IMG/VR virus record: IMGVR_UViG_3300044722_000002
Span: 1 to 64,000 of that record
Length of the DNA stretch: 64,000 nucleotides
Source: a virus
Reading direction: 5' to 3' (one strand)
The translations under genes and the position numbers were made by a program. Positions 56,573 through 60,849 of this stretch are shown in pieces (within the stretch, counting starts at the first letter, position 1; the number at the start of each line of letters is the position of its first letter). The notes below the pieces were generated by a model, which was not told the DNA's origin, made no database searches, and was given only the letters and a program-made list of their open reading frames with translations.

Positions 56573-56840
56573 CGATGTAACCGAGTTGTTGGCCAACGGC
56601 GCACGGTTACCCGAACATCCCGCTTCGACTAACTCGTTAAAAGTAGTCTCGTTTGGCACCGTAAGAGACGATGGTGACGGGACGATCCTTAAGGGTGGAT
56701 TACATGAGAATGAGGTTCGAATCTTGATGAGCGGGCATCCGGGAGCGTTGGGCCACCTTTACCGATTTGTGATTCGAAACCAGCGAATCTACCACACTCG
56801 TTCACTGGTTACGATTGACGTTCTCTGCGAAGATGCCTGA
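56544..56840 (+). CDS. Small hypothetical protein
   Basis: 98 residues, overlapping the previous gene by 29 bases and the terminase start by 8. Beta-rich (LKVVSFGTVRDDGDGTIL, GHLYRFVIRNQRIYH). Unknown function. Confidence 0.5.
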   Translation: MSDGTTSRVDDVTELLANGARLPEHPASTNSLKVVSFGTVRDDGDGTILKGGLHENEVRILMSGHPGALGHLYRFVIRNQRIYHTRSLVTIDVLCEDA

Positions 56841-59800
56841 ACCAACCCTAGAACATGTACTTGATCTTCTCGCCAGTTCGACGCCTGAGCAGGTTGACAA
56901 AACAATGTCATGGCTCAAGGCGAACATTCCTGATACCTATAAAAGACTCAGCGCCTACCTTAAACTAAACAAAGGTATTTTTATTGAGCGGCGCGGGCCG
57001 GAGCATTGGTTAAAGACTCTTGGTGCGCAGACGTTCACCCGTCCCTTTGCTCCAATTCAACGAAGATTTTGGGAGTGGAACTGGGGAGCGTTAAATAAAG
57101 TACGAAACGGAGTCCCGCTTGATCCGAAAGAGACGGTTGGGTTTCTACCGTGGCCCAGAGAAACAGGAAAGTCGAGCCACGTGGAGTGGGCGGCAATAGC
57201 CGAGGGAGCCATACTTAAAAGCGGCTATGTTATTTACCTCTCCGCAAAACTCTCACAAGCAATAGACCACGTGGTTGCGATTCGTGATCGCATCGAGTCG
57301 GAACACGTGGCTGAGACCTACCCGTGGCTGGGAAAACCAAAACTAGGAGCGCACGGAAATAAGTTCGGCTGGGGGCAGGAGTTTTTAATGACTTCGGGCG
57401 GCTGGTCTATTCGACCAGTCGGAGCGGATGTAGCGATGCGCGGCGGGAAGTCAATCAACCTTAGACCATCTATGGTGATTTGTCATGAACGCGGCACGCG
57501 AATGCTGCATGAGAGCCAGTGGATCAAAGTAGAAGATCACCCCACGGCCAAAGAGCACCGATCTGATGGCGTTGAGGTGCAACTGCACGGACTTCCATTC
57601 AGGGAAACGGTTTCGCTGGATCATCGGTATAAGGTTATTAGCAAGAGACGAACTACGGTTAACGGAGAGAAGAATGTTTATGTTTGGACTGCGCCAGCGT
57701 GGGTGAAAGGCAGTGATCTTTCCGAAGAGTGTTACGTCGGTCTGCCTATTGATTTCTCTGTGAAACCGCTCCAGCCTGTCTTAAAAGATTTTAGTCGGAA
57801 GAAAATTGTTGGACGTGATAAAAAGGGCCGAATCACTAAATATGAGAACGTGGGTTTGGAGCGTGTGGTTATTGAGGAGTTTTTTGATCCCGATTGGTGG
57901 TGGCTAATTGGATTGTGGTGGGGAGACGGACACTTAACAAAAACTCAGGTTGGGTGGACCATCGCCACTGCAGAGCCAGAGATATTTGCCCGCGTATCGT
58001 CCATTCTTCGTCGCTGGAATAAGCCCTATTCAGTCGTACCGAAGTCTGGATGCTCTCAAATTGTTATCGCGCATACAGCTATGAGCCGATGGCTGCGAAC
58101 GTGGAAGTTAAGCAAAAAGCAAGGACATAAAGCCCCTCCCGCATGGGTGGAAAAACTTAACAGCGTCTATCAAGAGCGATTGATTCAAGGCTACGTAGCA
58201 GCGGACGGTTTTATTGACATCGCGGGGAACGGGGTTCGTATCACAAGCGTGAGTTTAGAAGGTCTGCTTGCGTTACGACGAATCCTTTTGCGATTTGGTA
58301 TCTGTTCGTCTATCCGACGGGGTGTCGGGCCAGGGCAGATAGTTATCAAAGGAAGGACTTGCCAAACCCAACAAAAATATGACCTGAGATTTAGGGGTGG
58401 AGCAAGAAGTCTTGGATACCCGTTTGATGATCAAACTCGCTATGACTTTGTTCAGTATTTTATTGAGGACGGGTGGCTATGGTCGAAAATTAGATCGCTA
58501 GCCCCCGCGCTCGATAAAGTTTTCGTGCCGATAAAAACGGAAGATCATACATATGTAACGGCATTTGGTCAGTCGCACAATTGCGACGACTACGACGAGC
58601 TGGGCGACTCTCCGCACGTGGTTGAGCATAAGGAGCACATGCTAACGCGGGCCATCCTTCCGATGGGCAACGCTAACACCCGTGTGCTCGTTCCGCAGAA
58701 CCCAATTCATCCGAATTCAGTGGTTAACCGAATGCTGACGGGCGCATCTCTTGCTTTGGCTATCCGTACTATCTTTGGGGAGATTAACGAAGAGGGCTCA
58801 CTTAGCGCGAGACCAATCCAAGCCGTTAAGGGATTAGTGTACGAAGTTCGTCAGGCCGACGAAGGCCCGTACTCGGTCATCACGCAGGGCGAGTCTAACT
58901 GGCCCGGTATCACGGTTTCTGACTGGGAAGGCACAATGAACAGGGTAAGCCCGGACGCGTTTGCCGCTGAATACCAGCACGATATGACGGTAGTAAAAGA
59001 GGAAAGAGTACTACCTGAATACGATGATCGTGTTTTACGTTTACACGTAATTACCTGGAGTCAGTTTGAGGCGAAATATAAGATACGTCGAATTCCGAGA
59101 GACTGGCCCTGCGATGTTGGGCTGGACATTGGTTACACGGTGGCCCACAAGTCAGCATGGTCGTTCATTAGTAAAGTACCGCAAGCATATGAATTGTCGG
59201 GCTCAATCTTCCGCTACCGAGGCCGCACGTTCACCGGCATTGGCATAGACGAACAGGCGGTAATCATTCGCAGTGAACTTTGGCCGGAAGAAAAGATTGA
59301 GCGAGAGTACATGAGCCATGAAAAACTAGGCGAGCGAATGGTTCTGAATTCCAAGCATGACTGGCACTTTAATCCATTTCCTGATATTGGAAAATTTGCA
59401 GGGGTGGCCCAGTGGCGACACTTTTTAATGTCCGATCATTCTCAACCGCATCCGTTTCATCCTGACAGAAAAGGGATAGACGGACGTTGGGAGCTTGGTC
59501 GTCCGGCATGGTTTGACGTGGTCGATGATCGACAGTTTATCGCCCCAGTGGACGATGCGGGCATGAAAGGGCATCGCGACGGTGCTTATAACTGGCGTAA
59601 AGTGCCGGTTAAGTTAACGGATAAAGGATTAACTATTGAGCAGCCAGCTAAGAAGGATGACGATGAATGCTTTGTGGCTGGAACTCTGATTACGACCGCG
59701 AGAGGCGAAGTCCCGATTGAAGAAATAGGCCAAAAAGATGTAGTCCTGACACGACAGGGATGGTATAGTGTTCTCGCTTGTGGCAAGACTAAATCTGAGG

Positions 59801-60849
59801 CTGAAATATGGACAATAACCCTAAGCAGTGGAAGCCAATTGAGCGGGACGAAAACACATCCGATTTGGGTTGTGGGTTACGGGTGGAAACCGTTATCGGA
59901 GATAAGGGCAGGCGAGAGGTTGTTGTCTTTAACGGAGTGCGCTTCTATCGCTACCCAGAGTCAAAGCATTGGGCGCACCGAGCCTATTTCAAGCCCCACG
60001 TACACGCCGTTCGTAAGGGAATTGGTGCGTTACACATCGAGCTTTGGAAGTCTGTTCACGGAGATATTCCAGAAGATCACGCGGTTCATCACAGGGACCA
60101 TAATCCGCTTAACAACGCCGATTCCAATTTTGAATTACTTACCCGTTCCGAACATAGCAGCCATCACGGGAATAACATGCAGCCTGAAGTTAAGGCGCGA
60201 ATGCGCGCAAATATTATCAGCCAGCAGGAATTGGCAAAGATCTGGCATCGAAGCGACGAAGGAAGGGAGTGGCACAGAAAACACGCTTACCAAAGCATTC
60301 AGCCGCCACCTAAAATTGAAATGCAATGCATGTACTTCTTTTGTCAAAAGCTTTTTCAGGGGCGTAAGGGGGTTAGTAAGTTTTGTTCGACGGTCTGTAA
60401 GCAGCGCGATTACGACGGAGTTGTTCCCACATGGCGATTATGTTTACAGTGTAATACGCCGTTTGAAGTCGGAACCAAGGATCGCGTCCACTTATACTGC
60501 GGAGGTTTTCGTTGTAAGCAATCAGAGGATAGATGAACTTTCCACTGTTTACAATCTTTCAGTAGAGCGTCATTCTGAGTATTTCGCTAACGGCGTGCTG
60601 GTTCATAATTGTGACAGCACACGCGGAATTTTAACGGGTTTTGGGCCATCTGAACAGGCGATGACGCAATCACAGAAAATACAGCAAATCATCCCCGCTG
60701 GCTATCATAAATCTGAGTTGCTTTTGAGAAACGATATCCCTCCCGACGTTGCTCACATGACCGGGGAGATGGCTGACTGGCTGGCGCGAAGGACGCTTGC
60801 TTTAAGACAACCAAAAGCAGTAGACGATTATGGTCAGATTATTTCGTAA
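56833..60849 (+). CDS. terL: Terminase large subunit with two inteins
   Basis: 1338 residues from the ATG at 56833; a TTG 18 bases earlier is in frame but less likely. Walker A PRETGKSS (108-115); the Walker B line LRPSMVI...CDDYDELGDS is interrupted by intein 1 (217-583). Nuclease domain with DVGLDIGYT (D761, D765); last acidic motif DDDE...CDSTRG is interrupted by intein 2 (946-1259). After splicing the protein is about 657 residues, normal for a terminase. Packages DNA through the portal encoded just downstream. Confidence 0.9.
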   Translation: MPEPTLEHVLDLLASSTPEQVDKTMSWLKANIPDTYKRLSAYLKLNKGIFIERRGPEHWLKTLGAQTFTRPFAPIQRRFWEWNWGALNKVRNGVPLDPKETVGFLPWPRETGKSSHVEWAAIAEGAILKSGYVIYLSAKLSQAIDHVVAIRDRIESEHVAETYPWLGKPKLGAHGNKFGWGQEFLMTSGGWSIRPVGADVAMRGGKSINLRPSMVICHERGTRMLHESQWIKVEDHPTAKEHRSDGVEVQLHGLPFRETVSLDHRYKVISKRRTTVNGEKNVYVWTAPAWVKGSDLSEECYVGLPIDFSVKPLQPVLKDFSRKKIVGRDKKGRITKYENVGLERVVIEEFFDPDWWWLIGLWWGDGHLTKTQVGWTIATAEPEIFARVSSILRRWNKPYSVVPKSGCSQIVIAHTAMSRWLRTWKLSKKQGHKAPPAWVEKLNSVYQERLIQGYVAADGFIDIAGNGVRITSVSLEGLLALRRILLRFGICSSIRRGVGPGQIVIKGRTCQTQQKYDLRFRGGARSLGYPFDDQTRYDFVQYFIEDGWLWSKIRSLAPALDKVFVPIKTEDHTYVTAFGQSHNCDDYDELGDSPHVVEHKEHMLTRAILPMGNANTRVLVPQNPIHPNSVVNRMLTGASLALAIRTIFGEINEEGSLSARPIQAVKGLVYEVRQADEGPYSVITQGESNWPGITVSDWEGTMNRVSPDAFAAEYQHDMTVVKEERVLPEYDDRVLRLHVITWSQFEAKYKIRRIPRDWPCDVGLDIGYTVAHKSAWSFISKVPQAYELSGSIFRYRGRTFTGIGIDEQAVIIRSELWPEEKIEREYMSHEKLGERMVLNSKHDWHFNPFPDIGKFAGVAQWRHFLMSDHSQPHPFHPDRKGIDGRWELGRPAWFDVVDDRQFIAPVDDAGMKGHRDGAYNWRKVPVKLTDKGLTIEQPAKKDDDECFVAGTLITTARGEVPIEEIGQKDVVLTRQGWYSVLACGKTKSEAEIWTITLSSGSQLSGTKTHPIWVVGYGWKPLSEIRAGERLLSLTECASIATQSQSIGRTEPISSPTYTPFVRELVRYTSSFGSLFTEIFQKITRFITGTIIRLTTPIPILNYLPVPNIAAITGITCSLKLRRECAQILSASRNWQRSGIEATKEGSGTENTLTKAFSRHLKLKCNACTSFVKSFFRGVRGLVSFVRRSVSSAITTELFPHGDYVYSVIRRLKSEPRIASTYTAEVFVVSNQRIDELSTVYNLSVERHSEYFANGVLVHNCDSTRGILTGFGPSEQAMTQSQKIQQIIPAGYHKSELLLRNDIPPDVAHMTGEMADWLARRTLALRQPKAVDDYGQIIS
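57481..58581 (+). other. Intein 1, in the Walker B motif, with LAGLIDADG domain
   Basis: 367 residues, TerL 217-583. First residue Cys at 57481, last residues HN with a following Cys (58582). It separates the hydrophobic Walker B strand from its acidic residues, a highly conserved target. LIGLWWGDG (from 358) and LIQGYVAADG (450-459) are LAGLIDADG motifs, so this is a homing-competent full intein. No mutation of the Cys or Asn is seen. Confidence 0.85.
59668..60609 (+). other. Intein 2, at the last nuclease motif
   Basis: 314 residues, TerL 946-1259. Starts CFVAGTLI (Cys at 59668), has block B TKTHP (His 1009) and ends YFANGVLVHN with Cys following at 60610. About 240 residues between block B and the C-terminal block are not a LAGLIDADG or HNH domain in this frame; they correspond to the region that encodes an HNH enzyme in another frame. 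All four splicing motifs appear intact. Confidence 0.85.
59808..60536 (+). CDS. HNH homing endonuclease nested out of frame in intein 2
   Basis: 242 residues, frame offset by -1 to the terminase. ATG at 59808 has GAGG about 7 bases upstream. HVHAVRKGIG...WKSVHGDIPEDHAVHHRDHNPLNNADSNFELLTRSEHSSHHGN is the HNH core (residues about 69-118). Then two zinc-binding clusters (CMYFFC...CSTVC and CLQC...CGGFRC). Complete and intact, wholly inside the intein. A second protein made from the same DNA, by internal translation initiation, is inferred. Confidence 0.8.
   Translation: MDNNPKQWKPIERDENTSDLGCGLRVETVIGDKGRREVVVFNGVRFYRYPESKHWAHRAYFKPHVHAVRKGIGALHIELWKSVHGDIPEDHAVHHRDHNPLNNADSNFELLTRSEHSSHHGNNMQPEVKARMRANIISQQELAKIWHRSDEGREWHRKHAYQSIQPPPKIEMQCMYFFCQKLFQGRKGVSKFCSTVCKQRDYDGVVPTWRLCLQCNTPFEVGTKDRVHLYCGGFRCKQSEDR

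What the first reader, a model, noticed from the sequence alone, without database searches (positions are those of the whole stretch)
59668..60609. HNH endonuclease gene nested out of frame inside a terminase intein
Intein 2 has complete splicing motifs (CFVAGTL, TKTHP, VHN|C) in the terminase frame, but no in-frame endonuclease. In the -1 frame, 59808-60536 encodes a full HNH enzyme with HHRDHNPLNN and two zinc clusters. The same ~730 bases must remain open in both frames, so the intein linker is an overprinted sequence. Inteins with endonucleases normally hold them in frame. I know of no established case of this nested layout, though I cannot search.
Basis: partly seen in the sequence, partly recalled or inferred. 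Interest (0 to 1): 0.9.

Follow-up and report, generated by a model that had tools for sequence, protein, structure and literature searches.

The report
Endonuclease gene overprinted within phage intein
A self-splicing insert in a virus's DNA-packaging gene carries a second gene, for a DNA-cutting enzyme, written over the same letters in a shifted reading frame, and the same hidden layout turns up in about 150 other phage inserts, so it looks like a widespread and largely overlooked kind of mobile element.

Summary
The terminase (TerL) frame is open through a complete Hint/intein (59668-60609). A full HNH endonuclease ORF (59808-60536) lies inside it in the -1 frame. Searches with the HNH protein alone, which cannot select for a frame, found the same layout repeatedly. 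In total 166 loci (146 distinct DNAs, 132 clusters below 70% identity) have Hint-N / HNH / Hint-C with the HNH always at -1 and no stop in the intein frame; none has the HNH in frame. Synonymous shuffling of the HNH genes predicts 344 stops in the intein frame; 0 are seen, and freestanding relatives do have stops. Substitutions favour HNH third positions, so the HNH protein is conserved while the intein linker is filler that splicing would discard. The HNH usually has its own ATG (130/146) and slippery sites are rare (10/146), so internal initiation is favoured over frameshifting. Two related phages differ by an exact 597-nt HNH block in otherwise alike inteins, and by a whole nested intein. 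The closest published case is the ShiLan domain: an out-of-frame HNH in a phage methylase, also at -1, but without splicing domains. Translation, splicing and homing are untested.

The parts
56815..60849 (+). terL, terminase large subunit with two inteins, one open frame of 1344 codons
   Evidence: ORF; PHROG terminase large subunit match of the N-extein stretch
57481..58581 (+). Intein 1, ordinary plan with LAGLIDADG endonuclease in frame, in the putative Walker B motif (MVI|CDDYDE); internal contrast to intein 2
   Evidence: LAGLIDADG_3 6e-12 in the terL frame; boundaries read from the sequence
59668..60609 (+). Intein 2, 314 residues, inserted at the TerL nuclease motif (DDDE|CDSTR)
   Evidence: same site motif as most relatives
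59668..59937 (+). Hint-N: Cys1, block A CFVAGTL, block B TKTHP (intein residues 1-90)
   Evidence: pLDDT about 97; aligns with mini-inteins
59938..60495 (+). Intein-frame linker (residues 91-276), no known domain, low-confidence structure, overprinted by the HNH gene
   Evidence: pLDDT about 54; absent from mini-inteins; sequence not conserved
60496..60609 (+). Hint-C: blocks F and G, VYNLSVERHSEYFANGVLVHN, followed by Cys+1 at 60610
   Evidence: pLDDT about 97; NCBIfam intein C-terminus
59808..60536 (+). HNH endonuclease ORF, 242 codons plus TGA, in the -1 frame relative to terL
   Evidence: HNH_3 1e-11; PHROG HNH 1.8e-22; mean pLDDT 89.7
60030..60158 (+). HNH_3 domain of the HNH protein (residues 75-117), HHRDHNPLNN motif
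   Evidence: motif conserved
60327..60515 (+). Two Cys4 zinc clusters of the HNH protein (C174, C179, C193, C197 and C212, C215, C231, C236)
   Evidence: Nearly invariant columns
59797..59800 (+). GAGG, possible Shine-Dalgarno 7 nt before ATG 59808
   Evidence: Sequence; such matches enriched at HNH starts in relatives, 23% with 5 or more bases against 3.6% at random positions

Best explanation
Intein 2 is a splicing intein with a gp41-1-like Hint, inserted at the TerL nuclease active-site motif. Its homing endonuclease is a separate HNH gene overprinted in the -1 frame at the usual endonuclease position between Hint blocks B and F. Shown from sequence: both frames are open and both are selected, the HNH for its protein and the intein frame for lack of stops; the layout is a recurrent family; the HNH block and the whole intein are each present or absent in related phages. 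Inferred: ribosomes make TerL-intein-TerL as one chain, and Hint splicing removes the intein together with its nonsense linker, so TerL is unharmed. Some ribosomes start internally and make a free HNH enzyme. That enzyme cuts intein-free terL copies in mixed infections and repair copies the intein in. Because the linker is excised, the HNH gene need not be in frame; it only has to avoid stops in one other frame, which is cheapest when the host frame reads the HNH at +1 (HNH at -1 to the host).
For: Complete Hint motifs and Hint fold at pLDDT about 97 with a disordered linker. HNH intact and well folded. 166 loci with the same -1 layout and an open intein frame, 74 of 80 from the frame-blind HNH query, 0 in frame. 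0 stops against 344 expected. HNH third positions vary most; HNH identity exceeds linker identity in all 10,585 pairs. ATG in 130/146 and Shine-Dalgarno enrichment. Exact 597-nt HNH block and whole intein present or absent between L119 and L121. Mini-inteins without HNH.
Against: No experiment shows splicing, HNH translation or cleavage. Linker folding might disturb splicing. HNH distances track TerL better than Hint, so intein and HNH may not always travel together. The window's own start codon is uncertain, and its case alone gives only P=0.02. Loci are not fully independent.
Confidence: 0.8

Rival explanations
1. The HNH is made by programmed -1 ribosomal frameshifting, giving a TerL-HintN-HNH fusion instead of a free enzyme.
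For: The phase is right for a -1 shift in all 166 loci, and 10 of 146 have a suitably placed slippery heptamer.
Against: 136 of 146 lack a slippery site; 130 have an ATG in the short stretch before the domain against 46 and 19 ATGs in the other two frames; Shine-Dalgarno matches are enriched. A fixed phase is also explained by stop avoidance or common descent.
Confidence: 0.08
2. The HNH is not a homing enzyme but a packaging-related nuclease kept by the phage, which happens to lie in the intein.
For: Freestanding relatives sit directly beside terL, some HNH proteins take part in packaging (stated in PMC11855218), and HNH distance follows TerL rather than Hint.
Against: HNH in the canonical endonuclease slot; patchy presence with mini-inteins at TerL sites; HNH block and whole intein present or absent between related phages; HNHs of the inteins at the GADWGFA|CDP and related sites (L118, L139, L145, L156) form their own clade.
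Confidence: 0.09
3. An ordinary in-frame HNH intein broken by sequencing errors, or a decayed endonuclease.
For: A single locus taken alone could be an indel artefact; L178 looks like a nested intein with one frame break.
Against: 146 distinct sequences, isolates included, share the same phase; two compensating indels would be needed each time. Catalytic and zinc residues are conserved and HNH third positions vary most.
Confidence: 0.01
4. The intein frame is open by chance or base composition and the insert behaves like a ShiLan element that is not spliced.
For: High-GC HNH genes have few stops in +1 anyway (expected about 1.3 at GC above 0.6). ShiLan shows that unspliced out-of-frame HNH inserts exist (PMC11855218).
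Against: Low-GC loci expect 3.0 stops and have none, while freestanding low-GC relatives have 11. Complete Hint motifs flank the HNH in every case, and Hint positions show ordinary third-position bias.
Confidence: 0.02

Closest known systems
ShiLan domain, mycobacteriophage DNA methylase (Arsenault, Gosselin and Gogarten 2025, PMC11855218)
   Same: HNH endonuclease with zinc clusters encoded out of frame in an insert that leaves the host frame open; also in the third (-1) frame; patchy distribution
   Different: No splicing domain and not an intein by the authors' own tests; methylase rather than TerL; GTG start; described in few phages
Fractured genes with gp41-1-type split inteins (Dassa et al. 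2009, from own knowledge; gp41-1 structures 6qaz, 6riz)
   Same: Hint closest to gp41-1 by profile and fold; endonuclease gene between Hint halves; seven relatives here are split this way
   Different: In the window TerL and both Hint halves are one continuous ORF; the HNH overlaps it instead of separating two genes
Homing inteins with the endonuclease as an in-frame domain (LAGLIDADG, or HNH in some; general knowledge); intein 1 of the same gene
   Same: Endonuclease in the slot between blocks B and F; insertion at an active-site motif of an essential phage gene
   Different: Endonuclease is a separate -1-frame gene, not a domain of the precursor
Freestanding HNH genes beside terL (PAE1, SN1, FBPa53, EauM-23, BP10)
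   Same: Same HNH family with zinc clusters, 31-39% identical
   Different: Not overprinted; their +1 frame contains stops
Mycobacteriophage TerL inteins (Kelley et al. 2016, PMC5050341)
   Same: Inteins in the large terminase of phages
   Different: Sites there lie in the ATPase domain, and no out-of-frame endonuclease appeared in the passages read; most sites here are in the nuclease domain

Membership tests
Intein (Hint superfamily) | Cys/Ser at position 1, block B TxxH, C-terminal HN, Cys/Ser/Thr at +1 | tested here: met
   C1, TKTH, VHN, C+1 in the window; shared by relatives
Intein (Hint superfamily) | Hint fold | tested here: met
   AlphaFold Hint parts about 97 pLDDT; Foldseek gp41-1 7.8e-6 and 32 hits at or below 0.001
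Intein (Hint superfamily) | Self-splicing activity | not testable with these tools
   Needs expression
Homing intein with in-frame endonuclease | Endonuclease domain in the intein frame | tested here: not met
   No endonuclease domain in the frame of intein 2; 0 in-frame cases among the loci
HNH homing endonuclease | HNH motif and zinc clusters | tested here: met
   HNH_3 1e-11; conserved columns
HNH homing endonuclease | Fold of a known homing HNH (I-HmuI) | tested here: inconclusive
   1u3e is the top fold hit but E=0.13, probability 0.89; profile E=0.0072
HNH homing endonuclease | Element present or absent at an otherwise alike site | tested here: met
   Whole nested intein and HNH block present in L119, absent in L121; shown for relatives, not for the window's own site
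HNH homing endonuclease | Cleaves intein-free target | not testable with these tools
   Needs a cleavage assay
ShiLan-type hidden HNH insert | Out-of-frame HNH in an insert that leaves the host frame open | tested here: met
ShiLan-type hidden HNH insert | No splicing domain | tested here: not met
   Complete Hint
Fractured gene / split intein | Host gene and Hint halves in two separate ORFs | tested here: not met
   One ORF in the window; met only in relatives such as L182, L184, L187, L189, L193

The most novel reading that the evidence does not exclude
A widespread, diverse class of phage TerL inteins in which the homing endonuclease is always an overprinted -1-frame gene. Protein splicing disposes of the out-of-frame filler, so a freestanding HNH gene can settle in a mini-intein of an essential gene without an in-frame fusion. 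Freestanding, split and overprinted forms are interchangeable states of one mobile HNH.
Probability: 0.7. Interest if true: 0.9.

Novelty: new variant of a known kind. Interest (0 to 1): 0.86.

Why it matters
Inteins are normally described as carrying their endonuclease in frame, as a domain of the precursor. Here a whole family separates splicing and homing into two overlapping proteins that share the same DNA. It gives overlapping-gene research about 150 diverged natural examples with one fixed phase, mini-intein controls, and a plain reason why overprinting is tolerated: the second product would be spliced out and thrown away. Annotation misses these enzymes (TJE1, Highwayman and LS06 are annotated as terL only), so homing endonucleases are undercounted. 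The split relatives suggest a route between continuous and fractured inteins.

Tried and rejected
Single-protein scans of viral contigs with the HNH or the intein alone found nothing; alignment-based scans did. Frameshifting was considered and is disfavoured by start codons and the scarcity of slippery sites. Sequencing error was rejected by recurrence. A single origin of the nested state could not be shown: freestanding and split HNHs fall among nested ones with at least 4 changes forced, and long branches make that tree weak. I expected HNH and Hint distances to agree; they agree poorly, which may be noise from the short Hint or real exchange, left open. BP10 was tried as an intein-free match for Highwayman, but TerL identity is too low (27%) to serve as an empty site. 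Literature: 10 searches of open-access papers found only ShiLan (and phages carrying it) as an out-of-frame HNH precedent; Gorbalenya 1998 on non-canonical inteins is not held, and most subscription papers were not searchable.

Full report
What is there. The window comes from a 73,122-base IMG/VR virus record. terL (56815-60849) is one open frame of 1344 codons. It holds two inteins. Intein 1 (57481-58581) has the usual plan with a LAGLIDADG domain in frame. Intein 2 (59668-60609) has complete splicing motifs and Pfam and NCBIfam intein matches, but the 186 codons between its two Hint parts match nothing. In the -1 frame the same bases encode a 242-aa HNH protein (59808-60536) with HNH_3 at 1e-11 and a PHROG HNH match at 1.8e-22.

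It is a family. tblastn of the HNH protein against annotated phages hit the inside of genes annotated only as terL in Tetrasphaera phage TJE1, Acinetobacter phage Highwayman and Rhodobacteraceae phage LS06. In each, and in a gut phage contig, the terL frame is open through a Hint intein and the HNH is at -1. Alignments of these four and the window were used to scan IMG/VR and GTDB genomes. Custom profiles then classified all loci. 166 loci have Hint-N, HNH and Hint-C with no stop in the intein frame: 146 distinct DNAs and 132 clusters below 70% identity. In all 166 the HNH is at -1. The HNH-only query, which cannot select for a frame, gave 74 of 80 viral loci with this layout, and no search gave an HNH in the intein frame. 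A Halobacterium plasmid with terL-portal genes has it too. The exteins are TerL of several types, with the intein mostly at the nuclease motif D-x-H|C-x-D-A-x-R-Y.

Both frames are under selection, in different ways. Shuffling synonymous codons within each HNH gene predicts 344 stops in the intein frame; none is seen (summed log10 P -225). The third frame has 2760 stops. Freestanding HNH relatives do have stops in the corresponding frame (for example 11 in L005 and 11 in L088). The codon pairs that would make a stop occur 0 times in 29,275 HNH codons but 5.07 times per 100 codons in TerL exteins of the same loci, and NTA codons are depleted to 14% against 24-26%. In related pairs, HNH codon positions differ at 0.19, 0.15 and 0.29, so the HNH protein is conserved. 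HNH identity (mean 36%) exceeds that of the overlapping linker (20%) in every one of 10,585 pairs. The linker is therefore selected for openness, not for its sequence. These tests treat loci as independent, which they are only in part.

Structure agrees. AlphaFold gives the HNH a mean pLDDT of 89.7. Read in the terL frame, Hint residues 1-90 and 277-314 reach about 97, while the linker stays near 54. The Hint is closest to gp41-1 by profile (8e-19) and by fold (8e-6). The HNH domain starts at about intein codon 94 and its stop lies about 18 codons before the intein end (medians), the usual endonuclease slot. The stop codon often lies within the Tyr-Asp/Asn or Val-Glu codons of Hint block F.

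How the HNH is made. In 144 of 146 loci the HNH frame is closed by a stop inside the intein, upstream. 130 have an ATG in the short stretch before the domain and 12 a GTG. Shine-Dalgarno matches of 5 or more bases occur at 23% of these starts against 3.6% at random positions. A -1 slippery heptamer that could enter the HNH frame occurs in only 10. Internal initiation is thus favoured, by inference. In the window, ATG 59808 has GAGG 7 nt upstream, but most relatives start nearer the domain, so the true start is open.

Why -1. In the 14 freestanding or split relatives that I counted by hand, the +1 frame holds about 5 stops per gene and the +2 frame about 13. A host frame that reads the HNH at +1 (HNH at -1 to the host) therefore needs far fewer synonymous changes. 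The ShiLan HNH is in the third frame of its methylase as well, the same phase. That this explains the fixed phase is inference; common descent could also contribute.

Natural experiments. Mini-inteins of 126-132 residues without an HNH occur at TerL sites and align with the window's Hint, the gap falling on the HNH region. L119 carries two tandem inteins in TerL Walker B, four residues apart, both with HNH at -1. Its relative L121 has no intein A (an empty site), and its intein B is 597 nt (199 codons) shorter, the missing block being the one that carries the HNH; the adjoining upstream pieces are 80-89% identical. So both the intein and the HNH block are gained or lost as units, in steps that keep the frame.

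Links to other states. Seven relatives have the terL gene split into two ORFs with the HNH between the Hint halves, the fractured plan. Others are freestanding beside terL. In the HNH tree these states are mixed, with at least four changes forced, though support is weak. HNH distances follow TerL (0.385) more than Hint (0.133), which hints at HNH exchange between inteins or at target-driven divergence; this is not resolved.

Known or new. The only precedent found is the ShiLan domain (PMC11855218): an out-of-frame HNH in a phage methylase, expressly without splicing domains. Mycobacteriophage TerL inteins (PMC5050341) lie in the ATPase domain, and no out-of-frame endonuclease appeared in the passages read. 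The literature searched is open access only. The best label is a new variant of a known kind: a homing intein whose endonuclease is overprinted rather than fused. What is missing is any experiment; splicing, HNH translation and cleavage all remain inferred.

Noticed in passing
L119:4004-6007 (IMGVR_UViG_3300032242_002717): Two tandem inteins only four TerL residues apart (CDEL) in Walker B, both with a -1-frame HNH; the relative L121 has an empty first site and an HNH-less second intein.
   Followed up: partly
L090:3924-4760: HNH gene downstream of terL whose open +1 frame ends in a second copy of the TerL C-terminus (GDCxRYDLCNFEYTTFKxLGHYQK), with no Hint: looks like a ShiLan-type insert.
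   Followed up: no
L004, L182, L184, L186, L187, L189, L193: Split versions: TerL-HintN ORF, HNH ORF, HintC-TerL ORF, as in fractured genes with split inteins; L004 is Vibrio phage 1.245.O.
   Followed up: partly
L014, L017, L018: Freestanding HNH genes, two of them near the window's HNH in the tree, beside a terL whose nuclease site (DHHVDALRY, DHWVDACRY, DHCVDAMRY) carries no intein.
   Followed up: partly
window:57481-58581: Intein 1 in the same terL carries its LAGLIDADG endonuclease in frame, so both plans occur in one gene.
   Followed up: no
L199:1484-3796 (Halobacterium plasmid pGSL19_54.9): Archaeal plasmid with terL and portal genes has the same nested -1 HNH intein, annotated only as a Hint domain protein; probably a provirus-like element.
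   Followed up: partly
L178: Nested intein whose Hint-N is one frame off the rest: an indel or assembly error, or a real frame break.
   Followed up: no
123 nested loci: HNH distances correlate with TerL distances (0.385) much better than with Hint distances (0.133), while Hint does not follow TerL (0.034).
   Followed up: partly
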